Positions 3,461-57,694 of a DNA stretch of 64,000 bases are shown piece by piece. The notes beneath the pieces are model-generated. The model did no database searches. It was not told where the DNA came from and saw only the letters and a list, made by a program, of their open reading frames with translations. Within the stretch, counting starts at the first letter, position 1. Each line of letters starts with the position of its first letter. The position numbers and the translations under genes were made by a program. This DNA comes from Chloroflexota bacterium (GTDB lineage: Bacteria; Chloroflexota; Anaerolineae; Anaerolineales; Villigracilaceae): NCBI GenBank assembly GCA_016235445.1, contig JACRLB010000017.1, positions 124,001 to 188,000 of the forward strand. The letters run 5' to 3'.

Positions 3461-3794
3461 GAAGCTGTATCTCACGGACATTGTGGAAGCGGCACAAGCC
3501 ATTGAAAGATTTTTAATGGGGTATGATTTCAATGATTTTGAGAAAAATGACATGCTCAACAGCGCGGTACTCCAAAAGCTGACCGTAATCGGGGAGGCGG
3601 CTTCCCGTTTATCAAAGGATTTTACAACTCGATTTCCTGAAATCCCCTGGGTGGATATCATAAGTTTTCGCAACATTGCTGTGCATGAGTATTTTGCTAT
3701 TCGCTGGGATATTGCCTGGGTTGCCGCTTCTGAGGAAGTGCCTGTGCTGAGAGCGCAAATTGAGAAAATATTGCAAGACGATTTTCAAGATTGA
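3450..3794 (+). CDS. hepT: HepT-type HEPN RNase toxin
   Basis: 114 residues, alpha-helical HEPN family (HepT/DUF86). The RNase signature RX4HXY is intact: 'FRNIAVHEYF' (Arg, four residues, His, Glu, Tyr). The Tyr is the residue AMPylated by MntA in studied homologues. ATG 3450 gives an 11-nt overlap with mntA, the same overlap as in the opposed second pair nearby, which supports this start. Predicted cytoplasmic RNase toxin. It ends 16 nt before a perfect bidirectional terminator. Confidence 0.85.
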   Translation: MRPEKLYLTDIVEAAQAIERFLMGYDFNDFEKNDMLNSAVLQKLTVIGEAASRLSKDFTTRFPEIPWVDIISFRNIAVHEYFAIRWDIAWVAASEEVPVLRAQIEKILQDDFQD

Positions 3795-3809
3795 AATCAC
3801 CCTCATTTT

Positions 3810-3853
3810 CAAAACAAAACTCACCCAAATTATTGCGGGTGAGTTTTGTTTTG
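3810..3853. terminator. Bidirectional terminator between convergent MntA/HepT pairs
   Basis: A perfect 17-bp inverted repeat (arms 3810-3826 and 3837-3853) with a 10-nt loop. The arms contain A-rich and T-rich outer ends (CAAAACAAAAC / GTTTTGTTTTG), so it can terminate in both directions. It separates two hepT genes that converge on it. Confidence 0.8.
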
Positions 3854-3888
3854 GCAGGTGGATAATAAGACTGACTATTATCAAGCCA

Positions 3889-4230
3889 TTAATTTTCTTC
3901 AAGAATTTCTTTAATACGGGGAACAAGCGGGGGAAGGTCTTCAGTGACTGTTTGCCAGATAATGCTGAGATTCACGCCATGGTATTCGTGAACGACAATA
4001 TTTCGCATGGTGTACATTTCCATCCACGGAATTTCGGGATATTTTTCCTTGATTGCACGCGGGATATGCCTGGATGCTTCACCGATGATTTCAAGGTTTC
4101 GAAGGACAGAGTCTATCGTTTTGTCATCCTCTTCGAATTCATCGAAAGCCATTCCCTGGGTGTATCTTTGAATTCGGGAAATACATTCCAAAATATCGTC
4201 GAAGCGTATTTTCCAGTTTCTAGGCGGCAC
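3889..4230 (-). CDS. hepT: Second HepT-type HEPN RNase toxin
   Basis: 113 residues starting at GTG 4230 and beginning 'VPPRNWKIRFDDILECI'. The RX4HXY motif is intact in 'MRNIVVHEYHG'. The GTG start is chosen because it overlaps the upstream mntA by 11 nt, exactly as in the plus-strand pair, and because HEPN similarity begins there; longer upstream extensions read through the mntA frame. It belongs to the same family as the toxin at 3450-3794 but is clearly diverged (different N-terminus and helices), so it is not a recent copy. Confidence 0.85.
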   Translation of the reverse strand: MPPRNWKIRFDDILECISRIQRYTQGMAFDEFEEDDKTIDSVLRNLEIIGEASRHIPRAIKEKYPEIPWMEMYTMRNIVVHEYHGVNLSIIWQTVTEDLPPLVPRIKEILEEN

Positions 4231-4510
4231 GGATTGCTTCCTTGAGGATAGTTTCGCGCAGTTCTTTTCGCAATGCTTCAGGCGTGACCAAATCCACTTT
4301 TCTGGCAAGCAATTCTTCGAGATAGAGTTTGAGACGGGCAAACTCAAACAAGCCAATCGGTCTCTCGAAATCCACCAGCAGGTCAACATCGCTGCGCTTG
4401 CGAACCTGATCGCGCGCGATGGATCCGAACAGGGAAATGGAACGAACGCCAAATTTTTTCAATTGGCGTTTGTGTTTCTTCAAGAGGGAAAGGATTTTGT
4501 TGCGTTCCAT
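4220..4510 (-). CDS. mntA: Second MntA-type nucleotidyltransferase antitoxin
   Basis: 96 residues from ATG 4510. The motif 'LFGSIARDQVRKRSDVDLLV' has the GS and the DVD catalytic pair of minimal nucleotidyltransferases. The C-terminus overlaps the hepT start by 11 nt. It probably AMPylates its cognate HepT (3889-4230). The pair faces the plus-strand pair across a shared terminator. Confidence 0.85.
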   Translation of the reverse strand: MERNKILSLLKKHKRQLKKFGVRSISLFGSIARDQVRKRSDVDLLVDFERPIGLFEFARLKLYLEELLARKVDLVTPEALRKELRETILKEAIRAA

Positions 4511-4608
4511 GATTTTTTCAATTTTATCATGGCGCGTCTCTAACAAATCACCGTATCCGGCTGAATAAAACGGTTAAGATGAGGTTAATATAAACGCGCC
4601 TTAATTTC

Positions 4609-5340
4609 CTACGCCCCCGGCGTATATTTCTCTTCCCACTCTGTTATCGCGGCGCGGATGATGGTTTTGATGGTCTGGTCGGGGACATCGTCAATCGATT
4701 CGTATTTTTGCATGCCGACGTACACTTCCACGCCGCCTTGAAGCGATTCTTGCAGGCGGATGCCGCTTTTTTCGAGCGGGGTATTCAGCAGGCGTTCTTG
4801 CAGGACGGTGTCAATTTGCTGAACGATGCTCAGGGATGATATCTGTTTATCGGGTTCAGGTTTTTTGAGAGACTGCGCGGGGCGGGGAGATGCTTCTTTG
4901 GGGGATGCAGGCATGAGCGGAGTTTGAGGCGGGGCGGCGGGTGCGGGAATTGCCGCGGGAGTCTGTCCGCCTTCCATCCACGGGCGCATGACAGTCACCA
5001 GGTCGATCAGCCGCTTTTTTTGCTCGGGGGAAATATTTTTTGGGTTCAGGGTCATGCCATCCAGTTCAAGCAATGGAGCGCCGTTTTTGTTTTTCAAACG
5101 CAGGAGGCCGGGGTCATCCACTGCGGCAGGGATGGAAGCCTTGAGCGCCTCTGCCGCCGCCAGTTTTTGTTCTGCTTCGGTGCGCGCCACATTTGCTTTT
5201 GTTTCAGCGGCATCTATTTTTTTCACCGAGCGGATGTTTGAATCCACGTAGCCGATGAAAAAGCCGATCAGCAAAACCACAAGACCCAGCCCCCACAAGG
5301 CTGGCACGGGCCAGGTAACAGTTGCGAATTGGACTTCCAT
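4609..5340 (-). CDS. Single-pass membrane protein of unknown function
   Basis: 243 residues, not recognised. One N-terminal membrane segment (about residues 14-32, 'PALWGLGLVVLLIGFFIGY') is followed by a helical, coiled-coil-like Ala/Glu-rich stretch (about 43-72), a Pro/Ala-rich linker (about 128-160) and a C-terminal folded region with 'IVQQIDTVLQERLL' and 'GVEVYVGMQKYESIDDVPD'. The C-terminal part may be a ligand- or peptide-binding domain, but no motif decides it. It begins two bases from the end of mutM, same strand, so it is probably co-transcribed with it. Confidence 0.6.
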   Translation of the reverse strand: MEVQFATVTWPVPALWGLGLVVLLIGFFIGYVDSNIRSVKKIDAAETKANVARTEAEQKLAAAEALKASIPAAVDDPGLLRLKNKNGAPLLELDGMTLNPKNISPEQKKRLIDLVTVMRPWMEGGQTPAAIPAPAAPPQTPLMPASPKEASPRPAQSLKKPEPDKQISSLSIVQQIDTVLQERLLNTPLEKSGIRLQESLQGGVEVYVGMQKYESIDDVPDQTIKTIIRAAITEWEEKYTPGA

Positions 5341-5342
5341 GA

Positions 5343-6164
5343 TTATTTCCTTTCAAGAGGCTGGCATTTCGGGCAAACATGCGTGCCGCGCTGGCCGACG
5401 ATCAACTTTTGAATTTCAGCGCCGCAGACGGGGCAGGGCTTGCCTTCACGGTCGTACACGCGAAAATAATTTTGATATTCGCCGCCGCGATAGACCCAGT
5501 CGATGCTGGCTCCGTTGCGGCGGATTCCTTCTTTGAGCGCCGATTGGATCGCTTCGCTCAGCGCCCCAGCCTGCTTGCGCGAAATGGCATTCGACAACCC
5601 GAGAGGGTGCAGTTTTGCCATGTGCAGGCATTCATCGGTGTAGATGTTGCCGAGGCCGGCGAGAAACGTCTGGTCGAGCAGGAGCGGTTTTAATTGGCGT
5701 TTCTTTTTATGTAAATTTTCGAACAACCATTGCGCTGTAAATTTTTTCTCCAGCGGTTCGGGGCCCAGTTTGCCGAGGATGGTTTCGGGCTGGTCGGTGA
5801 GCCAGATGCGGCCAAATTTGCGGGTGTCGTTGAAGGCGAGCTGGCTTTCCTTTCCATTTTTGGAGCGCAGGGAGAGCACAAGGCGGTCGTGTTTTTCCGG
5901 CTTGATTTTACCTTTTCTTATCGTTAAATCGCCGCTCATTCTCAAATGGATAAGGAGATTGTAATCTTCAAGCTGGAGGATGAGGTATTTTGCGCGGCGT
6001 GAGACCCCCGTGATCTTCTGCCCCTGCACCTGTTCCTTGAATTTTTTTACCGAGGGGGTGGCAAGCGTCCGCGCCCAGAGCACTTCGGCGGAGACGATGG
6101 TTCTTCCGACAATGTCCGGTTCTATGGCGCGTGCGATGGTTTCAACTTCGGGGAGTTCGGGCAT
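5343..6164 (-). CDS. mutM: Formamidopyrimidine-DNA glycosylase
   Basis: 273 residues, the usual Fpg length. The N-terminus 'MPELPEVETIARAI' gives catalytic Pro2 and Glu3; Lys59 in 'SRRAKYLIL' matches the conserved DNA-contacting lysine. 'FLAGLGNIYTDE' is the helix-two-turn-helix signature. The C-terminal zinc finger is complete: Cys244, Cys247, Cys264 and Cys267, with Arg259 in 'GQRGTHVC'. It removes oxidised purines (8-oxoG, FapyG) and nicks by beta,delta-elimination in base excision repair. All catalytic residues are present. Confidence 0.95.
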   Translation of the reverse strand: MPELPEVETIARAIEPDIVGRTIVSAEVLWARTLATPSVKKFKEQVQGQKITGVSRRAKYLILQLEDYNLLIHLRMSGDLTIRKGKIKPEKHDRLVLSLRSKNGKESQLAFNDTRKFGRIWLTDQPETILGKLGPEPLEKKFTAQWLFENLHKKKRQLKPLLLDQTFLAGLGNIYTDECLHMAKLHPLGLSNAISRKQAGALSEAIQSALKEGIRRNGASIDWVYRGGEYQNYFRVYDREGKPCPVCGAEIQKLIVGQRGTHVCPKCQPLERK

Positions 6165-7880: not shown

Positions 7881-7944
7881 AGACCTGACAGGTTTTCACA
7901 CCAATATGACGTGATGAAATAAATTTCGGAAACCTGTCAGGTCT
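7881..7944. repeat. REPIN-like repeat (short form) in the btuF leader
   Basis: Inverted end units AGACCTGACAGGTTTTC (7881-7897) and GAAACCTGTCAGGTCT (7929-7944) flank a short core. The same end units occur around the RAYT gene at 15.8-19.9 kb. A further inverted pair CACGTCAT / ATGACGTG (7871-7878, 7907-7914) overlaps it. It lies between the riboswitch terminator and the btuF ribosome binding site. Confidence 0.8.
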
Positions 7945-11306: not shown

Positions 11307-12722
11307 ATGCTGAAAATCTACAACACCCTCACCCGCAAGACCGAAGAATTTCAAACCCTCGAACCCAACCTCGTCAAAATGTACGTCTGCGGCGTTACAG
11401 TCTACAACGACGCGCACGTTGGTCACGCCATGTCGGCGCTGGTCTTCGACATCATCCGCCGCTACCTTGAATATCGCGGCTACGCCGTCAGGCACGTCAT
11501 GAACTACACCGACGTGGACGACAAGATCATCAACCGCGCCAAACAGCTTAAGGAAGATCCGCTCAAGTTGTCGCAGCGCTACATCGACGATTACTCAGCC
11601 GACCTCAAGAGTCTGAACGTTCTGCCTGCCACATCCAACCCACAGGTCAGCAAGACCATGCCGCTCATCATCGAATTCATTCAGGGACTCATCCAAAAAG
11701 AAAATGCCTACGCCGCCTCGAATGGCGATGTCTATTTCAGCGTCACCAGCGACGATGACTACGGCCGCCTCTCTGGCCGCAAGCTCGACGATATGCAGGC
11801 AGGCGCGCGCATCGAAGTCGGTGAAGCCAAAACCCACCCCATGGATTTCGCATTATGGAAAGCCGCCAAGGAAGGCGAAATTTCATGGGACAGTCCGTGG
11901 GGCAAAGGCCGCCCGGGCTGGCACATCGAATGCTCGGCCATGAACCTCGCCGAACTCGGCGAACAGATCGACATCCACGGCGGCGGCAACGACCTCATCT
12001 TCCCGCACCACGAAAACGAGATCGCCCAAAGCGAATGCTACACAGGCAAGGAATTTTCGCGCTACTGGATTCACAACGGCATGTTACAACTCGGCGGCGA
12101 AAAAATGTCCAAGTCCCTCGGCAACATCGTCAGCATCAAAGACTTCCTCTCCAAACGCTCCGCTGATGTCATGCGCATGTTGGTTTTGAATGGGACGTAT
12201 CGCGCGCCGTTGACGTTCAACGACGACACCCTCGACGCCGCCGAAAAAAACGTCGAACGCCTCAAATCCGCCCTGCGGCCTGCGCGCGCCTCCCTGAGCG
12301 AAATCGAAGGGACAAAAAAAGGACTCTCCGCTGAAACACTCTCCGCTCTCGCGTCTGCCAGCGACTCTGCCAAAACGAACTTCACCGAAGCCATGGACAG
12401 TGACTTCAATACCGCAGGCGCCATCGCCGCTTTATTTGAACTCAGCAAATTCATCAACACCGCCAGAGACAACTCCGCTACCGATGCACAACTCAAACCC
12501 GCGCAAGACACCTTCGTTGAATTGTCGGGCGTACTGGGGTTGAAGCTCGAAGAGAAACAAGGCACAGGCGAGCAGGATGAACAGGTCAATGCATTGATTG
12601 CCGAACGCAATGAAGCGCGCAAACAAAAACAATGGGCGCGTTCAGACCAGATCCGCGACCAGCTAAAAGAGATGGGCGTCACCATCGAAGACAGCAAAGA
12701 CGGGACGAGTTGGAGATGGTAA
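11307..12722 (+). CDS. cysS: Cysteinyl-tRNA synthetase
   Basis: 471 residues. The HIGH-type motif is 'HVGH' (37-40), KMSKS is at 266-270, and the zinc ligands Cys28, Cys209, His234 and Glu238 are in place ('MYVCGVTVYND', 'GWHIECSAM', 'FPHHENE'). DALR and C-terminal helical domains follow. It charges tRNA-Cys in the cytoplasm. The last 18 residues ('KEMGVTIEDSKDGTSWRW') are repeated, diverged, 600 bp downstream, so the present 3' end was probably supplied by an insertion event; the protein itself looks complete. Confidence 0.95.
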   Translation: MLKIYNTLTRKTEEFQTLEPNLVKMYVCGVTVYNDAHVGHAMSALVFDIIRRYLEYRGYAVRHVMNYTDVDDKIINRAKQLKEDPLKLSQRYIDDYSADLKSLNVLPATSNPQVSKTMPLIIEFIQGLIQKENAYAASNGDVYFSVTSDDDYGRLSGRKLDDMQAGARIEVGEAKTHPMDFALWKAAKEGEISWDSPWGKGRPGWHIECSAMNLAELGEQIDIHGGGNDLIFPHHENEIAQSECYTGKEFSRYWIHNGMLQLGGEKMSKSLGNIVSIKDFLSKRSADVMRMLVLNGTYRAPLTFNDDTLDAAEKNVERLKSALRPARASLSEIEGTKKGLSAETLSALASASDSAKTNFTEAMDSDFNTAGAIAALFELSKFINTARDNSATDAQLKPAQDTFVELSGVLGLKLEEKQGTGEQDEQVNALIAERNEARKQKQWARSDQIRDQLKEMGVTIEDSKDGTSWRW

Positions 12723-13306
12723 AGTATTATCTGGATGAGAGGAAGAGTACATTATCCACTGCCGATAAGCTATCTTTGATTGGATTGGCTGTTAGTGTTT
12801 TATCGTTGTTGATCGGTTTTCTTAGTTACGTTTTTCCTCTCCCCGCAGCCCTGGAACCAACTGCGTTTTGTCCTGATTTGCTGTCACAAGCCACTTTAAA
12901 GGAGTGGAAACAGGCGGGCGAAGTCCTTCAACCGTCGATTGGACGTTATATTGACGAGTTCGATCAAATACGCGGTGTAAATGGCGGTTTCGGAGCGGGA
13001 GATGTATTGCCCAGGAATGTTTTTATTATTACCGCTTTTGGAAACCGAGGCGAGACTTTAGTTTATCAAAGTTACCCCGTGAAGCCAGTTGTTCACTATA
13101 AAAGCTACGGAGTCTTCCAGACCACAAAAACTTTCAAAACAACTTTTGAAGGCGCATGTATGGAGTTGGATCGCTCCACTTTTTTCAACCTTTATGTGGC
13201 GATTCCTGTTTTCCTGATCTTCATTTTTGTATCGATTCTTGCGCTCCCCAGATCGTCTTTGTTAAAAAAGTTTTTCTCTTCAAAGAATCAAAGGAACTCA
13301 ACGTGA
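12716..13306 (+). CDS. Small two-helix membrane protein inserted at the cysS 3' end
   Basis: 196 residues from ATG 12716, overlapping the end of cysS by 7 nt. One membrane segment lies near residues 20-42 ('LSLIGLAVSVLSLLIGFLSYV') and another near the C-terminus ('LYVAIPVFLIFIFVSILAL'); the loop between (about 120 residues) would lie outside the cytoplasm. No family recognised. Base use is more AT-rich than cysS. The gene lies exactly between two copies of the cysS 3' end, so it is probably a recently acquired passenger. Confidence 0.6.
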   Translation: MVKYYLDERKSTLSTADKLSLIGLAVSVLSLLIGFLSYVFPLPAALEPTAFCPDLLSQATLKEWKQAGEVLQPSIGRYIDEFDQIRGVNGGFGAGDVLPRNVFIITAFGNRGETLVYQSYPVKPVVHYKSYGVFQTTKTFKTTFEGACMELDRSTFFNLYVAIPVFLIFIFVSILALPRSSLLKKFFSSKNQRNST

Positions 13307-13350
13307 CCATTGAAGACAGCAAAGACGGCACGACGTGGAGATATTGGTAA
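13291..13350 (+). pseudogene. Detached second copy of the cysS 3' end
   Basis: Encodes 'KELNVTIEDSKDGTTWRYW' and a stop, closely matching the cysS C-terminus at 12666-12722 ('KEMGVTIEDSKDGTSWRW'). At DNA level the two are similar but not identical. This is probably the original cysS end, displaced when the 196-residue gene arrived with its own cysS tail. Confidence 0.75.
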
Positions 13351-13417: not shown

Positions 13418-15721
13418 TTATATACCAGCGGACTGCTGATACAGGTATTGTTGAAACCCTATAAATATGTTTCGGATCGCTTCCACTGTTCCCAGTATTT
13501 CCTTTGCGTCTTCGATGGCTTTGTATTTGAGCGTAAGCAGGTGGGGGAGTTTTTCCTGATCAAGTTCCTCCACGCCTGTCTCGATATATTTGGAGAGGAC
13601 AAATTCCAGAAACTGTTTTTGTTCATTGCTGAGCGAAGCAAAAATGGCGGATTGAGCCTGGGCAACCCGCAATTCTCTTGTGATGGGGGCGACAGCAAAG
13701 GAGATGTATTCCAGCACATCGAGCAGATCGCTCTTCTCGGCGTTGATGAGCGTCTGCATCATGGACAATTCCTCTCTGCCGAAGCCAACCTGTTCCAATT
13801 GTTCGAGCAGTGCTTTGCGCGTGATGGGATTTGACCAAACTTTGCGCAGTTCCGTCTCACTTTTGAAGAAGGCAGGCAGGACGCCAAACAGGTTCTCCAA
13901 AAATTGATGGGCAGAAATGGGACGCCCGTCCGCACTGTAATACAGGGTGGATGTCATGTGCTGGATTTCGCGTTCCTTGCCATCGCGTAATTTCACTTTG
14001 ACTTTGAGGCGCGGCTCATAGGGTTCGGGTGGTTCTTGTGTGGTTCTGGGTGGACGATCTATAGGCTCTGGCTTTTCCACTGGCTCTTCGGGTTCGCCAT
14101 CCCACTCAGGGTCGGCGAAGTGATGATGGGCATCGACAAAGTCATAGATGGTGAAGTATTCCTTCCCGTCGAAGAGACGTGTACCGCGTCCGATAATTTG
14201 CTTGAATTCGATCATCGAGTTGATCGGACGCATGAGAATAATATTGCGGATGTTACGCGCATCTACACCTGTGGACAGTTTTTGCGAGGTGGTCAGGATG
14301 GTAGGAATGCTTCTTTCGTTATCCTGAAATTGACGCAGGTATTCTTCGCCGAGCGCACCATCATTTGCCGTCACGCGGACGCAGTACATCGGGTCTGTGC
14401 TTTTCTTGTATTGGTTGATCAGGTCGCGAACAGCGGCGGCGTGATCTTGTGTGGCGCAGAAGACGATGGCTTTTTCGTTCTGGTTGATCTCATCCATAAA
14501 GAGTTGGACGCGTTTGGCTTCACGAGCTTTGATCTCGATGATGCGGTTGAAATCAGCTTCCTTGTAAACTTTACCTTCTTCGATCTCACCTTCAACAATC
14601 ATGTCATCTGAGGTGTACACATATTCATCCAAAGTTGTCTTCATGCGGCGGACTTTGAACGGGGTCAGGAAGCCGTCGTTGATGCCTTCTTTCAAGGAGT
14701 ACACATACACAGGCTCGCCGAAATATTTATAGGTATCCACGTTGTCTTTGCGTTTGGGGGTAGCAGTGAGGCCAAGCTGGACGGCGGGCGAGAAGTATTC
14801 CATAATGGCACGCCAGTTGGATTCGTCGTTGGCACCGCCGCGGTGACATTCATTGATAATGATGAAGTCGAAATAATCTTTTGGGTATTCGCCAAAATAC
14901 GGTGTGTCGTTGGGGCCAGACATAAACGTTTGGAAGATGGTGAAGAAGATATTGCCATTTGTAGGGACGCGTCCCTTTTTACGGATCTCGTCGGGGCGGA
15001 TTCTCACAAGCGCGTCATCGGGGAAGGCGGAGTAGCGGGTGAATTCGCCAAATGCCTGGTCGGCGAGAATGTTTCGGTCGGCTAGAAACAGCACGCGGGG
15101 CCGCCGCGAAGCGTCGCGCTTTAAATTCCAGCGTGTTTGATATAACTTCCAGACGATGTGAAAGGCAATCGTCGTTTTACCTGTCCCCGTGGCGAGAGTG
15201 AGAAGGATGCGGTTCTTGTTTTCGGCGACGGCTGCCAGCGCATTGTTGACGGCGATCTCCTGGTAGTAGCGCGGAGGTTTGGTGCCGCTGATATCTTCGA
15301 AGGGGACGGGATTGAATTTGTCTTCCCAGTCGTTTTGGGTGAAGGTTCGCTGCCAGAGTTCTTCGGGTGTGGGGAATTTGGCGATGGTGCCTTCGCCGCC
15401 CTGCATGTTGATCTCGTAGATCTCTTTGCCGTTGGTGGAGTAGGCGAATTGCAGGCTGAGTTTTTGGGCGTAGTTCTTGGCCTGCCCCACGCCTTCGCCC
15501 ACGGAGTGTTTGTCGCTTTTGGCTTCGATCACAGCCAGTTGACGGTTCTTATAAACGAGAATGTAGTCGGTGATGAGCAGTTTGCCGCGCCCGCCGCCTG
15601 TTTGAATTTTGCCAGCAGTGATGTGACGCTCGCGCAAGACCCTGGAGCCATCGATAACGCCCCAGCCTGCCTTAAGCAGTTGGGGGTCGATTAATTCGGC
15701 TCGGGTTTCGGCTTCGTTCAA
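13418..15721 (-). CDS. hsdR: Type I restriction enzyme R subunit
   Basis: 767 residues, the EcoEI-like short HsdR class. N-terminal PD-(D/E)xK nuclease: Asp52 ('LLITDYILVY'), Glu66 and Lys68 ('LAVIEAKSD'). SF2 translocase: Walker A 'ATGTGKT' (177-183), motif III 'GLTATPKR', motif VI 'QIIGRGTR'. Motif II reads 'FIIINECHRG', with Asn290 where the metal-binding Asp of DECH is expected (codon AAT). Start is TTG 15721. The C-terminal region would bind the HsdM/HsdS complex. hsdM and hsdS lie upstream on the same strand, separated by the RAYT and REPINs. Whether the Asn still supports ATP hydrolysis is uncertain. Confidence 0.9.
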   Translation of the reverse strand: MNEAETRAELIDPQLLKAGWGVIDGSRVLRERHITAGKIQTGGGRGKLLITDYILVYKNRQLAVIEAKSDKHSVGEGVGQAKNYAQKLSLQFAYSTNGKEIYEINMQGGEGTIAKFPTPEELWQRTFTQNDWEDKFNPVPFEDISGTKPPRYYQEIAVNNALAAVAENKNRILLTLATGTGKTTIAFHIVWKLYQTRWNLKRDASRRPRVLFLADRNILADQAFGEFTRYSAFPDDALVRIRPDEIRKKGRVPTNGNIFFTIFQTFMSGPNDTPYFGEYPKDYFDFIIINECHRGGANDESNWRAIMEYFSPAVQLGLTATPKRKDNVDTYKYFGEPVYVYSLKEGINDGFLTPFKVRRMKTTLDEYVYTSDDMIVEGEIEEGKVYKEADFNRIIEIKAREAKRVQLFMDEINQNEKAIVFCATQDHAAAVRDLINQYKKSTDPMYCVRVTANDGALGEEYLRQFQDNERSIPTILTTSQKLSTGVDARNIRNIILMRPINSMIEFKQIIGRGTRLFDGKEYFTIYDFVDAHHHFADPEWDGEPEEPVEKPEPIDRPPRTTQEPPEPYEPRLKVKVKLRDGKEREIQHMTSTLYYSADGRPISAHQFLENLFGVLPAFFKSETELRKVWSNPITRKALLEQLEQVGFGREELSMMQTLINAEKSDLLDVLEYISFAVAPITRELRVAQAQSAIFASLSNEQKQFLEFVLSKYIETGVEELDQEKLPHLLTLKYKAIEDAKEILGTVEAIRNIFIGFQQYLYQQSAGI

Positions 15722-15752
15722 GGTAGTTCTATTTTACCTTTATTGAGGGAAT

Positions 15753-15846
15753 ACCTGACAGGTTTCCGAAGAACCCTGATCGGTCAGATCCATCCCCATT
15801 CATAAACGCCTAATCGTCAGACTCGATTATGAAACCTGTCAGGTCT
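15753..15846. repeat. REPIN 2, overlapping the RAYT 3' end
   Basis: End units ACCTGACAGGTTTC (15753-15766) and GAAACCTGTCAGGTCT (15831-15846), about 94 bp overall. On the minus strand the RAYT reading frame runs into it and stops at 15810-15812, so the last dozen or so RAYT residues ('LDLTGFIIESDD') come from the repeat. It lies upstream of hsdR. Confidence 0.85.
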
Positions 15847-16487
15847 AAAGGTTGGATTTCCTGATGAATTCGGATAAAGTCTGCGCAGCTTCCAAAGAGT
15901 TGAAGTACTTTCTCTCGTTGCAGGCGGGTTGGGTTGTTGGAAACAAGATCGTGGTATGAAGAATAATTCCAGTCGCGAAAATCGGTCACAAATTGATGCT
16001 TTTGTGGATTCTGGTGAATATACACAATAAGACGCATCAGATAGGATTCGGTATCGACAGGAATTCTATTGAATGGGCGTTCAAACAATGCACCTGTTCT
16101 TTGGACTGCAATATTGACGCTGCGTGAATAAGCGTTGAAGAAGTTGGAGAAATACTGGCTGGGTTCTTTGAGTTTTTTCTTAAGACCTGACAGGTCTCCA
16201 TGGGAGTCTGACGGGATTACACCTTTGTCCGCGCGTAAGTCCGGATTAACCGAATCGTTTATAAGACCTGTCAGGTCTTCCTTATTCTTTATCCACACTG
16301 CCGCGTGGAAATGATTTCGTAACAGACCATACGCCCACGTCTCGGCAATTGGACTGATATGCTTCCACCACAATTCCATGAAGTAGGCGTAGTTACGTTC
16401 TTGAATAAAGATATTCTCGCCGTTATTGCCGCGATTATAAATATGGAAGAATGTTCCGTAAGTGAGGGATGGAATGTCTGTGGGCAT
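15810..16487 (-). CDS. REP-associated tyrosine transposase (RAYT, TnpA_REP / Y1 family)
   Basis: 225 residues. The HUH nuclease motif is 'NHFHAAV' (His59, His61) and the candidate catalytic Tyr is Y120 in 'FFNAYSRSVN', followed by 'RTGALFERPFNRIPV' and 'YIHQNPQKHQFV', all typical of the RAYT class of IS200/IS605-related proteins. These single-domain Y1 enzymes bind and cut REP hairpins. Residues about 70-101 are encoded by a complete in-frame REPIN (16183-16278), lying between the HUH and Tyr regions, and the C-terminus is REPIN-derived. Flanked by further REPINs with the same ends, so it is very likely the enzyme responsible for this family. Activity with the insertion is unproven. Confidence 0.88.
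   Translation of the reverse strand: MPTDIPSLTYGTFFHIYNRGNNGENIFIQERNYAYFMELWWKHISPIAETWAYGLLRNHFHAAVWIKNKEDLTGLINDSVNPDLRADKGVIPSDSHGDLSGLKKKLKEPSQYFSNFFNAYSRSVNIAVQRTGALFERPFNRIPVDTESYLMRLIVYIHQNPQKHQFVTDFRDWNYSSYHDLVSNNPTRLQREKVLQLFGSCADFIRIHQEIQPLDLTGFIIESDD
16183..16278. repeat. REPIN 3, in frame inside the RAYT coding sequence
   Basis: End units AGACCTGACAGGTCTC (16183-16198) and AAGACCTGTCAGGTCT (16263-16278). The total of 96 bp equals 32 codons, so the frame is kept. It encodes RAYT residues about 70-101, giving the paired peptides 'DLTGL' and 'DLSGL' from the two ends. Confidence 0.85.
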
Positions 16488-16512
16488 ATTTCAATTATAA
16501 GACTCCAGAATA

Positions 16513-16607
16513 AGACCTGACAGGTTTCCACAGAGCCGCATCCGACTCGAATCTCTGTCCGTTCAAACTTATGACCGACTCAGGTCACGATGAAACCTGT
16601 CAGGTCT
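16513..16607. repeat. REPIN 4 (hsdS-side array)
   Basis: End units AGACCTGACAGGTTTCC (16513-16529) and GAAACCTGTCAGGTCT (16592-16607), with a core almost identical to REPINs 5 and 6. It begins 26 bp upstream of the RAYT start. Confidence 0.85.
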
Positions 16608-16608
16608 G

Positions 16609-16705
16609 GACTACAACTCCCCAGAAAACGCCTTCCCCAGCAGTACCCTTCGCAACTCTTCCAGCGACTCGACCTTCTGCTGATAAATCTCCTCCAACCG
16701 TAAAA
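16609..16705 (-). pseudogene. Second detached copy of the hsdS 3' end
   Basis: On the minus strand this reads 'LEEIYQQKVESLEEL' and continues to 'LGKAFSGEL' plus stop, the standard C-terminus of HsdS proteins. There is no start and no link to hsdS. It lies between REPINs 4 and 5. It differs from the first copy mainly in the segment before LGKAF ('RRVL' against 'KMSV'). Confidence 0.75.
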
Positions 16706-16801
16706 AGACCTGACAGGTTTCCACAGAGCCGAATCCGACTCGAATCTCTGTCCGTTCATAACTTATGACCGACTCAGGTCACGATGAAACTTGTCAGGTC
16801 T
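16706..16801. repeat. REPIN 5 (hsdS-side array)
   Basis: End units AGACCTGACAGGTTTCC (16706-16722) and GAAACTTGTCAGGTCT (16786-16801, one substitution). Its start is 193 bp from that of REPIN 4 and 194 bp from that of REPIN 6, giving a regular tandem period. Confidence 0.85.
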
Positions 16802-16802
16802 G

Positions 16803-16899
16803 GACTACAACTCCCCATAAAACGCCTTCCCCAACACACTCATCTTCAACTCTTCCAGCGACTCGACCTTCTGCTGATAAATCTCTTCCAACCGTAAAA
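16803..16899 (-). pseudogene. First detached copy of the hsdS 3' end
   Basis: Minus strand reads 'RLEEIYQQKVESLEEL', then 'KMSVLGKAFYGEL' and a stop: the C-terminal helix and tail normally found on HsdS. The neighbouring hsdS gene ends prematurely at 'RLEEIYEAKVT', so this copy carries the missing ending, separated from it by a partial REPIN. Confidence 0.8.
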
Positions 16900-16976
16900 A
16901 GACCTGACAGGTTTCCACAGAGCCGCATCCGACTCGAACCTCTGTCCGTTCAAACTTATGACCGACTCAGGTCACC
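16900..16976. repeat. REPIN 6, partial, truncating hsdS
   Basis: The left end AGACCTGACAGGTTTCC (16900-16916) and the core match REPINs 4 and 5, but the right end unit (about 19 nt) is absent: the repeat joins hsdS sequence at about 16974-16976. It supplies the last codons and stop (TGA, complement of 16967-16969) of hsdS. Confidence 0.8.
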
Positions 16977-18079
16977 TTCGCCTCATAGATCTCCTCCAAC
17001 CTCCCCGTTTCAGCGGACAACGCCTCCAGCCGCCCGACGATGGCGCGTTGTTCGGCGAGTGACTTCGGATATGGAAATACAACTTGCTTCAATGCACCGC
17101 CATTAAATTGCGGTTGTGCTGAACCAGAAGATAATTGATTTGCTTGACCCCAATAAAGTTTTGATTTTGAATAATACCAATAGAGTTTATTCAAAATCTT
17201 TTCAGTAAATTTGATTCTGATTAGATATGAAGCAAAAACAGAGGGTTCGAAATCTTCGTAAAGCAATACCTTTGCAAAAGTCGCGCCAGTTCTTGCCATC
17301 AACAAATCACCATCTTGTAAAAGAAAATTGCTGGCTTCCTTGAAACCATCTACATACATTTTGTTTCCAGGTATAAGATTCCCATTCTTGTCAATATCTG
17401 TAATGCGAATATATCTGAATTTGCCAGAACCTTGGGCTTTGTCGGTGTAGCCATATTCAATATCTGCTATTTCTTCAATTGTCTTTTCTTCCCATTCTTC
17501 GCCTGAATTACCAAATATCTCATTGACCGCAGCTTCAAACAACTCCCGCGCATTGACCAGATTCCGCTCGGCATTGGACTTGGCTTGCGCAATGGACGCA
17601 AAGGCTTCGTCTAGCACGGACACGATCCGCTGTTGTTCGGGGAGGGGTGGAATGGGAATTTCAAAATCTAAAACTGTATTCATATTGGCGCGGGGCATTC
17701 TTGCGCCAGTAGAAGTTGCATTTATTTTTTCAGTGGTTTCATCTGAAAGTAACCAATGAAACAAAAAACTTCTATCCAATTGATTTGATACCTTGAGCGG
17801 AAATATTTCTGAAGAACAATGCCCTTCAAAATCTGGCAATAAAACTTTCTTGAGATAAGGTCGCAATCTTCCGTACAATACATGCTTGTCGGAAAAATTG
17901 AACGTCATACTTTTTACGCTTTGTGGTTCTGTTGAGCCAATAAATTTTCCCGTGTTCGACTCAATATGTTCCAAGCCAACATAAGGTAAATTCTTTTTAC
18001 GATTGGGAATTTTGTCTATTTCGCAGACATCTCCCAACCTTTCAACTTTCCAACCTTCTAACTTTCCACCCTTCCTCAT
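16967..18079 (-). CDS. hsdS: Type I restriction-modification specificity subunit, C-terminally truncated
   Basis: 370 residues with two target-recognition domains. TRD1 is followed by the central conserved helix ('PPLPEQQRIVSVLDEAFASI'), then TRD2 ('EEKTIEEIADIEYGYTDKAQ') and the second conserved region ('SLAEQRAIVGRLEALSAET'). It recognises the bipartite DNA site and docks HsdM and HsdR. The expected tail (roughly 20 residues ending LGKAFxGEL) is missing because a REPIN interrupts the gene after 'EIYEAK'. Two copies of that tail lie downstream. The start overlaps the hsdM stop by 4 nt (18076-18079). Confidence 0.9.
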   Translation of the reverse strand: MRKGGKLEGWKVERLGDVCEIDKIPNRKKNLPYVGLEHIESNTGKFIGSTEPQSVKSMTFNFSDKHVLYGRLRPYLKKVLLPDFEGHCSSEIFPLKVSNQLDRSFLFHWLLSDETTEKINATSTGARMPRANMNTVLDFEIPIPPLPEQQRIVSVLDEAFASIAQAKSNAERNLVNARELFEAAVNEIFGNSGEEWEEKTIEEIADIEYGYTDKAQGSGKFRYIRITDIDKNGNLIPGNKMYVDGFKEASNFLLQDGDLLMARTGATFAKVLLYEDFEPSVFASYLIRIKFTEKILNKLYWYYSKSKLYWGQANQLSSGSAQPQFNGGALKQVVFPYPKSLAEQRAIVGRLEALSAETGRLEEIYEAKVT

Positions 18080-19575
18080 AACATCCCCTTGATTGACTTC
18101 AAAATCTTCGCACTCTCCTCATCCAGCAACTTCATCTCGTCGAGAATAGTTTGAGGCGCTCTCAGCGTAGAGTCCGCTTGTTTGTGTGGATTCTTAACCG
18201 AAAGGTCGAATGAAGCGGGGTCTACATCCGCCATATTCACCGTCCACGAATTCTCCGAATCCGCTTTCGACTTTTGTAGTTTTATAAAATCCGCCAGATC
18301 ATTTTCATTCAACGGATTGGTCTTGCCGAGATTGCGCTCCAAATTCAATTGATAGAACCAAATCTTTTTCGTGGGCGAACCTTTTTCAAAAAATAAAACC
18401 ACCGTCTTCACGCCCGCGCCCGTGAACGTGCCGCCAGGCAGATCCAACACCGTGTGCAGGTTGCAGGTTTCGAGCAACTGCTTGCGCAAACTCACCGACG
18501 CGTTATCGGTATTCGAAAGGAAGGTATTCTTGATCACCACGCCCGCGCGACCGCCCGCCTTCAAAATCTTGATGAAGTGCTGTAAAAACAAAAACGCCGT
18601 CTCGCCCGTTTTGATCGGGAAGTTCTGTTGCACCTCGGCGCGTTCCTTGCCGCCGAAGGGCGGGTTCGCCAGCGCCACGTTGTAACGATCCTTCTCCTGA
18701 ATATCAGAAAGATTCTCCGCCAGCGTGTTGGTATGCAAAATGTTCGGCGCTTCAATGCCATGCAGGATCATATTCATAATCCCGATGATATACGCCAGCG
18801 ACTTCTTTTCCTTGCCGTAAAAAGTTTTCTTCTGGAGGACGTCCGCTTCTTTCGTGCTGAGAGCTGGTTTTGCTTTCATGAACTCATACGCCTCGACGAG
18901 AAAACCCATCGAACCGCCCGCGCCATCGTAGACCGTCTCCCCAATTTGCGGCGCAACCACCTTGACGATCACCTTCTCCAGCGGACGCGGCGTGTAATAC
19001 TCCCCGCCGTTTCTGCCTGCGTTCCCCATGTTCTTGATCTTCTCTTCATACAGCACGCTTAACTCATGCTTCTCTTTCGACGAACGGAAGCGCAGTTCAT
19101 CCACGAGATTGATCACCTCGCGCAAGTTGTATCCGCTCTGAATGCGATTCTTCAACTCGCTAAATATTTCCCCGATCTTATATTCAATCGTATCCGCATG
19201 GTCAGCCGTCGTCCTAAACTTCTTGAGATACGGAAATAATTCATTGTTCACAAAGTCAATCAAATCATCACCTGTCATGGCTTTGTGAAAATCTAATTTC
19301 GCCCTGAGCGGAGACTGAGCGCCAGCATCAGTCGCAGTCGAAGGGCTTCCATTTACCCTTGGAGCCGCCCACTGATCCCACCTAAATTTCCCCGTGATAA
19401 TCGGCGTGTATGTTTTCCCCGATAACTCCGCCGCATCCTGCTTATCCTTCTCGAAATCATCCAAATACTTTAAGAACAGAATCCACGAAGTCTGCTCCAC
19501 ATAATCCAACTCGCTGGAACAGCCCGCGTCTTTCCATAATTTATCGTCGATGTTTTTGAAGGTTTGCTCGAACAT
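18076..19575 (-). CDS. hsdM: Type I DNA adenine methyltransferase subunit
   Basis: 499 residues. N-terminal HsdM helical domain ('MFEQTFKNIDDKLWKDAG'), SAM motif I 'VYDGAGGSMGFLVEAY' (217-225) and catalytic motif IV 'NPPF' (304-307). It methylates adenine-N6 as part of HsdM2S and protects the host. ATG 19575 follows a GGAG ribosome binding site placed just next to REPIN 7. Residues about 77-90 ('GSPSTATDAGAQSPLR') come from a short CTTCGAC/CTCAG-type repeat inserted in frame. The first 23 codons are duplicated twice upstream. Confidence 0.92.
   Translation of the reverse strand: MFEQTFKNIDDKLWKDAGCSSELDYVEQTSWILFLKYLDDFEKDKQDAAELSGKTYTPIITGKFRWDQWAAPRVNGSPSTATDAGAQSPLRAKLDFHKAMTGDDLIDFVNNELFPYLKKFRTTADHADTIEYKIGEIFSELKNRIQSGYNLREVINLVDELRFRSSKEKHELSVLYEEKIKNMGNAGRNGGEYYTPRPLEKVIVKVVAPQIGETVYDGAGGSMGFLVEAYEFMKAKPALSTKEADVLQKKTFYGKEKKSLAYIIGIMNMILHGIEAPNILHTNTLAENLSDIQEKDRYNVALANPPFGGKERAEVQQNFPIKTGETAFLFLQHFIKILKAGGRAGVVIKNTFLSNTDNASVSLRKQLLETCNLHTVLDLPGGTFTGAGVKTVVLFFEKGSPTKKIWFYQLNLERNLGKTNPLNENDLADFIKLQKSKADSENSWTVNMADVDPASFDLSVKNPHKQADSTLRAPQTILDEMKLLDEESAKILKSIKGML
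19312..19345. repeat. In-frame CTTCGAC/CTGAGC-type repeat inside hsdM
   Basis: A short stretch with the arms CTGAGCG and TCGAAGGG typical of a dispersed repeat seen also at 21196-21225 and around 39993. It encodes the low-complexity peptide 'SPSTATDAGAQSPLR', which interrupts the HsdM helical domain without changing the frame. Confidence 0.55.
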
Positions 19576-19588
19576 TTATTATTTCTCC

Positions 19589-19684
19589 AGACCTGACAGG
19601 TTTTATCGTGACGAATGTTAATCGGACTTCCATGAACGCGAACGAGTCTCGTCAATCATGGTTCTGCGGAAACCTGTCAGGTCT
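19589..19684. repeat. REPIN 7 (hsdM-side array)
   Basis: End units AGACCTGACAGGTTT (19589-19603) and GAAACCTGTCAGGTCT (19669-19684). Its core differs from REPINs 4-6 but is the same as that of REPIN 8. It lies 14 bp upstream of the hsdM start. Confidence 0.85.
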
Positions 19685-19759
19685 ATATCTCAACTCACTG
19701 GAACAGCCCGCATCTTTCCATAATTTATCGTCGATGTTTTTGAAGATTTGTTCGAACAT
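19652..19759 (-). pseudogene. Decoy hsdM 5' copy B (35-codon ORF)
   Basis: ATG 19759 with its own GGAG ribosome binding site opens 'MFEQIFKNIDDKLWKDAG' and continues to residue 23, identical to HsdM except for one residue. The frame then enters REPIN 7 ('RYRPDRFPQNHD') and stops at 19652-19654. It is a duplicate of the hsdM start, not a functional methyltransferase. It may act as an upstream ORF. Confidence 0.75.
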
Positions 19760-19772
19760 TTATTATTTCTCC

Positions 19773-19868
19773 AGACCTGACAGGTTTTATCGTGACGAAT
19801 GTTAATCGGACTTCCATGAACGCGAACGAGTCTCGTCAATCATGGTTCTGCGGAAACCTGTCAGGTTT
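19773..19868. repeat. REPIN 8 (hsdM-side array)
   Basis: End units AGACCTGACAGGTTT (19773-19787) and GAAACCTGTCAGGTT (19853-19867). It is 184 bp from REPIN 7, the length of one REPIN plus one hsdM 5' copy. Confidence 0.85.
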
Positions 19869-19943
19869 ATATCTCAACTCACTGGAACAGCCCGCGTCTT
19901 TCCAAAGTTTATCGTCGATGTTTTTGAAGGTTTGTTCAAACAA
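19836..19943 (-). pseudogene. hsdM 5' copy C, the outermost copy, with TTG start
   Basis: TTG 19943 begins 'LFEQTFKNIDDKLWKDAG' and reaches residue 23 before passing into REPIN 8 and stopping after 35 codons (19836). Its upstream sequence differs from copies A and B (no 'atttattatttctcc' segment), so it may retain the original promoter side. No clear -35/-10 could be fixed in 19944-20050. Confidence 0.7.
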
Positions 19944-20050
19944 GGTTTTATCTCCCGAAAAAAGATAAACTGATTTTATCCTATAAGCCATTCCCTTTAC
20001 CTGACAACCTTCAACCTGCAACCTCGTTATCAAGTAAAATCAGCCTCACC

Positions 20051-20785
20051 ATGAAAGAACTCATCTATTCCCGCAACGCAGTCTACGAAACCCTGCGCGC
20101 AAAGCGCAGGCAAATATTTTCCATCGACATCGCCGAAGGGGTGCAGGAGAAAGGCAAGATCGAGCAAATCCTCAAATTGGCACAAGAGCAGAAGATCAAG
20201 GTCAACCGCGTGCCGCGCCCCAGGCTGGATAAGGTTCACCAGAACAATCAGGGTGTCGTCGCCGAGGTCAGCGGATACCCGTACGCGGATGTGCTCGAGA
20301 TCCTCGAACGCTCGAGTGGGGAACTGCCCTTCATCCTCATGCTTGACTCTCTGCAAGACCCGCAGAACTTCGGCACGCTCATCCGCACCGCCGAAGCGCT
20401 GGGCGTGCATGGCGTGGTCATCCCGTCTGCCCGCACGGTGGATGTGACGCCTGCCGTGGTCAACGCGTCCTCGGGCGCGAGCGAGCACATGCTCATCGCG
20501 CAGGCGAATCTGTCCCAGACGATTGACGCGCTCAAAGAGAATGACATCTGGGTCGTCGGGCTGGATCAAGCCGGGGCGGAGGTGGAGGCGCGCGCAGTGT
20601 CGCGTCACCTGAAAGGCGCATTGGGATTAGTCGTCGGCTCGGAGGGCGAAGGCCTGCACGATCTCGTCCGCAAAAAATGCGACATCGTTTTGAAACTGCC
20701 GATGCGCGGCAAAATCGAATCGTTGAATGCGGCGGTGGCGGGGTCGGTGGCGTTGTATCTGGCTTATTTATCAAGAAAACCCTAA
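20051..20785 (+). CDS. rlmB: 23S rRNA (guanosine-2'-O)-methyltransferase, TrmH/SpoU family
   Basis: 244 residues. The N-terminal substrate-binding domain ('ELIYSRNAVYETLRAKRR') is followed by the SPOUT knot: 'LMLDSLQDPQNFGTLIRTAE' (motif 1), 'GLVVGSEGEGL' (motif 2) and 'LPMRGKIESLNAAVAGSVAL' (motif 3). All catalytic elements are present. It methylates the ribose of a 23S rRNA guanosine; RlmB (G2251) is most likely from the two-domain length, but a paralogous TrmH-like role cannot be excluded. Confidence 0.85.
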   Translation: MKELIYSRNAVYETLRAKRRQIFSIDIAEGVQEKGKIEQILKLAQEQKIKVNRVPRPRLDKVHQNNQGVVAEVSGYPYADVLEILERSSGELPFILMLDSLQDPQNFGTLIRTAEALGVHGVVIPSARTVDVTPAVVNASSGASEHMLIAQANLSQTIDALKENDIWVVGLDQAGAEVEARAVSRHLKGALGLVVGSEGEGLHDLVRKKCDIVLKLPMRGKIESLNAAVAGSVALYLAYLSRKP

Positions 20786-20809
20786 AGGTCTTTAAGACCT
20801 TTAGGGTTT
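20777..20809. terminator. Palindromic terminator-like repeat after rlmB
   Basis: Perfect 14-bp inverted repeat (20777-20790 / 20796-20809, arm AAACCCTAAAGGTC) around a 5-nt loop, overlapping the rlmB stop codon. The T-rich run after it is short, so it may be a dispersed repeat that also ends transcription. Confidence 0.65.
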
Positions 20810-57575: not shown

Positions 57576-57682
57576 TTTGATTTACGATTGGCGATTTACG
57601 ATTCACGATTGGCGATCAATCAGACTGTTCACTGATTACTGACAACTGACAACTGACAACTGATTACTGATAACTAACAACC
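57576..57682. repeat. Long 7-bp-period repeat upstream of the flippase-like gene
   Basis: Heptads GATTTAC, GATTGGC, GATTTAC, GATTCAC, GATTGGC (57581-57618), then CTGATTA and CTGACAA units repeated (about 57630-57680). This 107-bp array fills the gap between the flippase-like gene and lepA. It holds no gene. Confidence 0.8.
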
Positions 57683-57694
57683 ACTCACTGCCCC

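What the first reader, a model, noticed from the sequence alone, without database searches (positions are those of the whole stretch)
15753..19868. RAYT/REPIN system remodelling both ends of a type I R-M operon
Seven REPINs (15753-19868, plus one at 7881) share AGACCTGACAGGTTTC-like ends and surround a RAYT gene. At both ends of hsdM-hsdS the REPINs occur as tandem arrays in which each repeat is separated by a copy of the adjoining gene end: about 97 bp of hsdS 3' end (period 193-194 bp), and about 88 bp of hsdM 5' end (period 184 bp). So REPIN movement here seems to copy neighbouring host DNA along with the repeat, building repeat-and-gene-fragment arrays. REPIN/RAYT systems are known, but such paired, gene-end-carrying arrays bracketing hsdMS are unfamiliar to me. 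Inference: this may be a mechanism that varies restriction specificity or expression.
Basis: partly seen in the sequence, partly recalled or inferred. Interest (0 to 1): 0.9.

Follow-up and report, generated by a model that had tools for sequence, protein, structure and literature searches.

The report
Repeat-mobilising gene inside restriction operon
A small jumping-repeat system (a repeat-moving enzyme gene plus its hairpin repeats) sits inside a bacterial DNA-defence operon, and local duplications have stacked some repeats together with copies of the neighbouring gene ends; the stacks are an ordinary kind, but the repeated pairing of this enzyme with defence operons looks new.

Summary
Seven ~96-bp inverted-repeat elements (one cut short) lie at 15751-19868, with a 64-bp relative at 7881. 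They form tandem arrays of element plus hsdS 3' end (194 bp) and element plus hsdM 5' end (184 bp).
The arrays are a known kind: REPIN clusters that include flanking DNA are published (PMC3116915, PMC3733652), as are RAYT genes carrying their own REP in frame (PMC6006769). Similar arrays occur in related genomes at loci without RAYT, at a gene end in 10 of 11 loci. They hold no target-recognition domain, so varying specificity is not supported. Local duplication at the element is the best explanation.
The less ordinary point is the setting. hsdM-hsdS-RAYT-hsdR is one case of a recurring arrangement: 22 of 106 other RAYT loci have a restriction-modification (R-M) gene beside them (21 of 105 without one picked locus), and 41 of 42 nearest neighbours there are co-directional. 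Elements also gather at N6 methylase genes (9 of 49 places within 2 kb, 0.37 expected; 8 of 45 without this genome). The paper searches made found no RAYT/R-M link.

The parts
7881..7944 (.). short form of the element (64 bp) with the same ends
13418..15721 (-). hsdR, EcoAI/FtnUII family type I restriction subunit R
   Evidence: NCBIfam NF046051 E 5e-242
15751..15846 (.). full-length element at the 3' end of RAYT, 29 bp from the hsdR ORF; contains the RAYT stop codon
15810..16487 (-). RAYT (REP-associated tyrosine transposase), HxH at residues 59/61, YIHQNP motif
   Evidence: NF047646 E 8.1e-9, below its curated cut-off; profile of 18 RAYTs hits only PDB 4ER8 TnpAREP; motifs invariant in 18 of 18
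16183..16278 (.). full-length element in frame inside the RAYT coding sequence, between HxH and Tyr motifs
   Evidence: same site in L118, L328
16513..16607 (.). full-length element upstream of RAYT, outer end of the hsdS array
16608..16705 (-). copy T2 of the hsdS 3' end, ends ...RRVLLGKAFSGEL*
16706..16801 (.). full-length element in the hsdS array
16802..16899 (-). copy T1 of the hsdS 3' end, ends ...KMSVLGKAFYGEL*
16900..16973 (.). truncated element fused to the hsdS body; gives hsdS its stop codon
16967..18079 (-). hsdS, ends ...EEIYEAKVT* without the conserved tail
   Evidence: Methylase_S E 6.9e-36; tail present in G012 HsdS
18076..19575 (-). hsdM, start ATG in the innermost copy
   Evidence: N6_Mtase E 1.1e-60, HsdM_N
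19589..19684 (.). full-length element directly upstream of the hsdM ribosome-binding region
19685..19772 (-). copy T2 of the hsdM 5' end
19773..19868 (.). full-length element, outer copy of the hsdM array
19869..19956 (-). copy T1 of the hsdM 5' end; TTG start and GGGAGATAA as in related genomes, so probably the original start region

Best explanation
A RAYT gene with its own REPIN family (a REPtron) sits as a co-directional gene in a type I R-M operon, hsdM-hsdS-RAYT-hsdR. RAYT, by family a single-strand HuH/Tyr nuclease, is inferred to have spread the 96-bp elements in cis and in trans. Elements settle at gene borders. Where one sits at a gene end, the adjoining 40-150 bp has in some cases been duplicated locally with the element, most likely by strand switching at the hairpin, perhaps begun by a RAYT nick. 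Such copies survive at gene ends because one complete gene end remains. Consequences here: hsdM now starts from a copy with ATG and a new upstream region, and hsdS has since lost its tail by a deletion into an element. Shown: anatomy, recurrence, gene-end rule, operon setting. Inferred: RAYT activity, the duplication mechanism, the order of events, any effect on expression.
For: Anatomy. RAYT identity. The four close RAYTs fetched (71-80% identical) are surrounded by the same palindrome, and all four carry it inside the gene too: L118, L328, L352, and L119 as a short hairpin. RAYTs with other palindromes inside carry the matching one outside: a loop word recurs 3 times or more in 33 of 57 own flanks, 54 of 342 other flanks and 0 of 57 shuffled loops; 49 of 106 RAYTs had no loop that the motif rule could delimit and were left out. 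Arrays recur: 15 of 99 elements against 2 of 510 control places. The 15 lie in 11 loci, 10 of them gene ends. Elements lie at gene borders: a 3' gene end from 8 bp inside to 15 bp outside the edge at 31 of 82 elements and 34 of 1420 random places. Related hsdM loci show simpler states: element-hsdM in G012 and G024, hsdM without element in G002. Published tandem REPIN clusters with flanking sequence (PMC3116915, passages) and REP clusters with flanking DNA (PMC3733652, passages).
Against: At only 7 of the 15 duplicated elements do both copies reach to within 14 bp of the element; at the other 8 at least one gap is 23-219 bp, so a break at the element edge is not the rule. Element-rich genomes G009, G036 and G019 have no close RAYT. 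RAYTs of the same genus at about 43-52% identity (L120-L126, L128) have no ACCTGWCAGGT nearby. Single elements between two target copies (L177, L169) do not follow from simple duplication of element plus flank unless one element was lost. hsdS copies T1 and T2 differ in a block (KMSV/RRVL), more than their elements differ. No activity was measured.
Confidence: 0.6

Rival explanations
1. RAYT itself makes the arrays: one-ended or rolling-circle copying of element plus flank, or insertion with a long (40-150 bp) target duplication.
For: Gaps between element and the two copies are small in the clearest cases (left/right): hsdS 0/0, hsdM 0/6 and 14/0, L102 9/0, L104 0/11, L177 0/4, L169 10/6 bp. 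L177 and L169 have one element between two target copies. A rolling-circle model of RAYT-made arrays is published (PMC2817692, passages).
Against: 84 of 99 elements show no flanking duplication at the threshold used, and 8 of the 15 that do have larger gaps. Copy length varies widely. Arrays exist away from RAYT.
Confidence: 0.22
2. Homologous recombination between REPINs exchanged whole hsdMS cassettes and left ends of older alleles behind.
For: The hsdS end copies differ in a block while their elements are identical at 93 of 96 columns; the hsdS body differs from the copies in the shared EEIY.. stretch.
Against: The hsdM copies differ by few, mostly scattered changes, and similar arrays occur at other genes, e.g. 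L102, L104, L177.
Confidence: 0.1
3. The arrays are a switch that varies restriction specificity or hsd expression.
For: REPINs lie upstream of hsdM and between hsdS and hsdR; hsdM start codon and upstream sequence differ from relatives.
Against: The copies contain no target-recognition domain. The hsdS nearest the array has lost its tail. Arrays occur at unrelated genes.
Confidence: 0.05
4. Assembly artefact.
For: The window comes from a 55-contig assembly.
Against: Copies differ in sequence; similar arrays sit inside contigs of 3.1 Mb (G017) and 1.59 Mb (H5_CFX6).
Confidence: 0.03

Closest known systems
Tandem REPIN clusters of Pseudomonas fluorescens SBW25 (PMC3116915; passages seen)
   Same: REPINs repeated in tandem including their flanking sequence; clusters beside RAYT
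   Different: here the flank is a coding gene end, in a relative of Anaerolineae, with another palindrome
RAYT group 4 / TnpAREP subclass 2.4 (PMC6006769; section 13 and passages seen)
   Same: REP flanking the gene and inserted in frame between HuH and Y motifs; long and centrally deleted REP forms
   Different: repeat ends AGAC/GTCT instead of a GT[AG]G foot; Y motif YIHQNP instead of YIxNNP; gene lies in R-M operons ('restriction' has 0 occurrences in the paper's main text)
GTAG/CGTC REP families (PMC3733652; passages seen)
   Same: REP clusters with flanking DNA, REPs giving stop codons to ORFs, REPs inside ORFs
   Different: no GTAG or CGTC tag at the element ends here
Type I R-M systems with duplicated hsdS that switch by recombination (PMC7394358; search listing only)
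   Same: repeats beside hsdS
   Different: those shuffle specificity genes; here only the hsdS tail is repeated

Membership tests
RAYT / TnpAREP | HuH-Y1 single-strand nuclease sequence | tested here: met
   NF047646 matched by 18 of 18 aligned RAYTs (window plus 17 chosen beside R-M genes), the window's at 35.5 bits against a cut-off of 80, matching only residues 108-176 after the inserted element; only PDB hit 4ER8 TnpAREP, E 2.2e-4; NHFH and YIH.NP invariant
RAYT / TnpAREP | gene flanked by REP-type palindromes | tested here: met
   elements on both sides; also in the four close RAYTs
RAYT / TnpAREP | binds and cuts its REP | not testable with these tools
   needs protein
TnpAREP subclass 2.4 (RAYT group 4) | REP inserted in frame in the gene between HuH and Y | tested here: met
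   16183-16278
TnpAREP subclass 2.4 (RAYT group 4) | NH[IFV]H and YIxNNP motifs | tested here: inconclusive
   NHFH met; YIHQNP has Q where the paper's table gives N; no tree was made
TnpAREP subclass 2.4 (RAYT group 4) | REP with GT[AG]G foot | tested here: not met
   ends read AGACCTGACAGGTTTC / GAAACCTGTCAGGTCT, so the system is not filed as a plain member of the subclass
REPIN | two inverted REP palindromes forming one hairpin, in many copies | tested here: met
   ends pair in 13 of 14 folded elements, all but the truncated one; 7 forward full-length pairs in the own genome and pairs in 23 of 61 genomes
REPIN | mobility | tested here: inconclusive
   an hsdM site with and without element in different genomes; no recent jump was caught
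hsdS switching by recombination | recombining target-recognition domains | tested here: not met
   copies hold only the tail of hsdS

The most novel reading that the evidence does not exclude
RAYTs of this lineage are a recurrent, co-transcribed accessory of type I (and type IIG) R-M operons in this class of bacteria. The REPtron either tunes the ratio of HsdM, HsdS and HsdR through hairpins between the genes, or adds a single-strand nuclease to a defence that cannot act on single-stranded DNA; the addictive R-M operon in turn keeps the REPtron.
Probability: 0.28. Interest if true: 0.75.

Novelty: new variant of a known kind. Interest (0 to 1): 0.5.

Why it matters
Why RAYTs are kept in genomes although they are not seen to move as units is an open question (PMC6006769, passages). 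If one lineage is regularly built into R-M operons in the direction of the hsd genes, that gives a testable reason: they ride on, or serve, a defence system. The gene-end arrays also show how a hairpin repeat can rewrite a gene's start (hsdM) or cut off its end (hsdS) while a reading frame remains.

Tried and rejected
Long target duplication as the general rule: 84 of 99 genus elements and 121 of 128 elements of the wider collection show no flanking repeat at the threshold used, so it is not general. R-M loci with RAYT as a source of gene-end arrays: in the self-comparison of 22 such loci I recognised an R-M gene end repeated with elements only in L119; in L415 a 57-bp piece covering the hsdM start recurs on the far side of RAYT; repeats in other loci (L382, L399, L408 among them) were not looked at one by one. 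Phages and plasmids: no RAYT match in phages, one weak match in plasmids; one viral contig has an element pair, not read. PADLOC: 0 of 18 RAYTs match a model. Papers: 9 papers hold one of the two 11-mers, none relevant by title, none opened; searches joining RAYT or IS200 with restriction terms gave no described link by title and abstract start (listings only). Structure prediction was not run. No tree of RAYTs was made, so the subclass is by motif only.

Limits of the counts. Methylase genes: a first count on ten genomes that I had picked by hand, partly because such neighbours had been seen, gave 9 of 35 places against 0.34 expected; the count reported uses the 17 genomes whose elements one search listed (82 elements; that list was cut, so G024 is incomplete and six further genomes with pairs are left out), with all N6_Mtase places of those genomes, nearby pieces merged. 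41 and 40 of the 106 RAYT loci entered the Pfam scans; the 25 lowest-scoring did not, and those outputs show the first 25 of 92 and of 169 families. In the DDE-transposase control the first 25 of 61 families are shown, none R-M; 3 of its 54 ORFs are themselves DDE transposases; for the test I assumed one hidden R-M hit. The 40 loci fetched were picked by hand, 39 of them from the list, mostly in E-value order; the fortieth, L415, was picked because an hsdM had been seen beside it.
Full report
What is there. The window is C45:124001-188000 of a 4.13-Mb, 55-contig genome. On the minus strand lies a type I R-M operon hsdM-hsdS-RAYT-hsdR. Seven elements of about 96 bp with inverted ends AGACCTGACAGGTTTC / GAAACCTGTCAGGTCT lie at 15751-19868; one is truncated, and a 64-bp form lies at 7881. 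One element is in frame within the RAYT gene.

The arrays. In gene direction the hsdS side reads: hsdS body, truncated element, tail copy T1, element, tail copy T2, element, RAYT. The hsdM side reads: upstream, T1, element, T2, element, T3 with the rest of hsdM. TRF gives periods 194 and 184. Tail copies T1 and T2 are identical at 90 of 99 aligned columns, their elements at 93 of 96; the hsdM copies at 79 of 90 (T1/T2) and 83 of 89 (T2/T3), their elements at 95 of 96. T1 of hsdM has a TTG start and GGGAGATAA much as in related genomes, so it is probably the original start; T2 and T3 have ATG after GGAGAAATAATAA next to the element end. The hsdS body ends ...EEIYEAKVT* with the stop in the truncated element, whereas both copies and the HsdS of G012 carry a tail (...EELRKSVLKEAFEGLL* in G012). 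HsdS here has therefore lost about 18 residues.

Is it general? Full-length pairs occur in 23 of 61 genomes searched, all of the same genus; 0 of the 24 genomes of other genera in that sample had one, and reversed controls gave none. Direct repeats of the two 350-bp flanks were found at 15 of 99 genus elements against 2 of 510 random places (p = 6e-11), and at 7 of 128 against 4 of 714 in the wider set (p = 3e-4). The 15 elements fall in 11 loci. In 10 the repeated piece is a gene end: hsdS 3' and hsdM 5' here, hsdS 3' in G017, two Eco57I/TaqI_C-type R-M 3' ends (G017, G003), the 5' end of a Roc-COR/LRR gene and the 3' end of an NB-ARC/TPR gene in G017, the 3' end of a DUF2807 gene in G009, and the 3' end of a MerB-like gene at one orthologous site in G016 and G017; the eleventh (L200) is not. 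By the RAYT hits, L101, L102, L104, L169, L106, L105 and L177 have no RAYT in the stretch read. Related hsdM loci show simpler states: element directly upstream of hsdM in G012 and G024, no element in G002.

How it probably works. At 7 of the 15 elements both copies reach to within 14 bp of the element; at the other 8 at least one gap is 23-219 bp. In the 7, copies are 42-148 bp long. That fits local strand switching at a hairpin, with a RAYT nick as a possible start, but it does not prove a break at the element edge. L177 and L169 have a single element between two target copies, which leaves RAYT-made long target duplication open. Gene ends are favoured because a duplication there leaves one complete gene, and because elements sit at gene borders: a 3' gene end lies from 8 bp inside to 15 bp outside the edge at 31 of 82 elements and at 34 of 1420 random places. 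At 5 of the 82 the ORF ends exactly on the TGA of the element end.

RAYT and its repeat. The RAYT matches REP-associated tyrosine transposase, and a profile of 18 RAYTs finds only TnpAREP 4ER8 in the PDB. The four close RAYTs fetched (L118, L119, L328, L352) are surrounded by the same palindrome; L118 and L328 have the full in-frame element at the same site, L119 a short hairpin, L352 a loop word that recurs in its flanks. More distant RAYTs carry other palindromes inside and outside the gene (for example AGACCCTAAAGG in L120 and ACCTCACAGGT in L334). Loop words recur at least 3 times in 33 of 57 own flanks, 54 of 342 other flanks and 0 of 57 shuffled controls. REP inside the gene is the published mark of subclass 2.4. 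Against a simple story, G009, G036 and G019 have many elements but no close RAYT.

The setting. I took 106 non-redundant RAYT loci. A phmmer search with the window's and related R-M proteins found an R-M gene beside 22 of them: 15 of 45 with at least 180 bits to the window RAYT and 7 of 61 below (p = 0.008). One (L415) was fetched because an hsdM had been seen; without it 21 of 105. Orders include hsdS-RAYT-hsdR (L328, L358, L359, L361, L364 and the window), hsdR-RAYT-hsdM (L122, L124, L125, L126) and hsdM-RAYT-hsdS (L382), and the genomes belong to eight families by the tables. 41 of 42 nearest neighbours at the 22 loci are co-directional, against 101 of 145 at the other loci (p = 6e-5); gaps are mostly under 200 bp (ORF starts not curated). 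Pfam agrees: of 79 nearest ORFs of 41 loci, 7 match Methylase_S, 6 N6_Mtase and 6 HSDR_N; of 75 ORFs of 40 more distant loci, 3 match N6_Mtase; of 54 ORFs beside 30 DDE transposases none of the 25 families shown is R-M. Elements also gather at methylase genes: in the 17 genomes with listed elements, 9 of 49 N6_Mtase places have one within 2 kb, expectation 0.37; without this genome 8 of 45, expectation 0.33. L382 shows the anatomy well: hsdM, hairpin, RAYT with an internal hairpin, hairpin, hsdS.

Compared with what is known. Tandem REPIN clusters including flanking DNA, REPs giving stop codons, in-frame REPs and RAYTs with internal REP are published (passages and one section seen). The RAYT/R-M operon link did not show in searches (listings), nor in PMC6006769, where 'restriction' does not occur in the main text. 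So the arrays are a known kind in a new sequence family and place, and the operon link is the part worth following. Whether it is function or hitch-hiking is not settled by sequence.

Noticed in passing
window 12677-12717 and 13302-13342: The 3' end of the cysS-like gene (VTIEDSKDGTSWRW*) is repeated 625 bp downstream (VTIEDSKDGTTWRYW*), with a small membrane-protein-like ORF between: another gene-end duplication, without an element.
   Followed up: no
window 20777-20809: Hairpin AAAACCCTAAAGGTCTTTAAGACCTTTAGGGTTT of the palindrome class found inside and around a different RAYT lineage (L120, L121, L123).
   Followed up: partly
L169 and L177 (G017 and G016), MerB-like gene beside an element: The MerB-like reading frame continues past an in-frame stop (TGA in L169) at the same place in two genomes: a selenocysteine candidate or a shared lesion.
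   Followed up: no
L032 (own genome C28) 3642-5400: Several copies of an HsdS-like 3' end (recognised by eye) with no hsdS recognised nearby, beside an element; looks like the remnant of an older array.
   Followed up: partly
L342/L336 (Marithrix, Gammaproteobacteria): A RAYT with the same palindrome flanked by short hairpins in tandem, four on one side and three on the other, period 64-66 bp.
   Followed up: partly
L120/L146 (G001:C41): Two RAYT genes in tandem (83% over 867 aligned positions), followed by hsdR.
   Followed up: no
window 57579-57690: Tandem repeats of 7 and 14 bp (ACTGACA, GATTTACGATTCAC).
   Followed up: no
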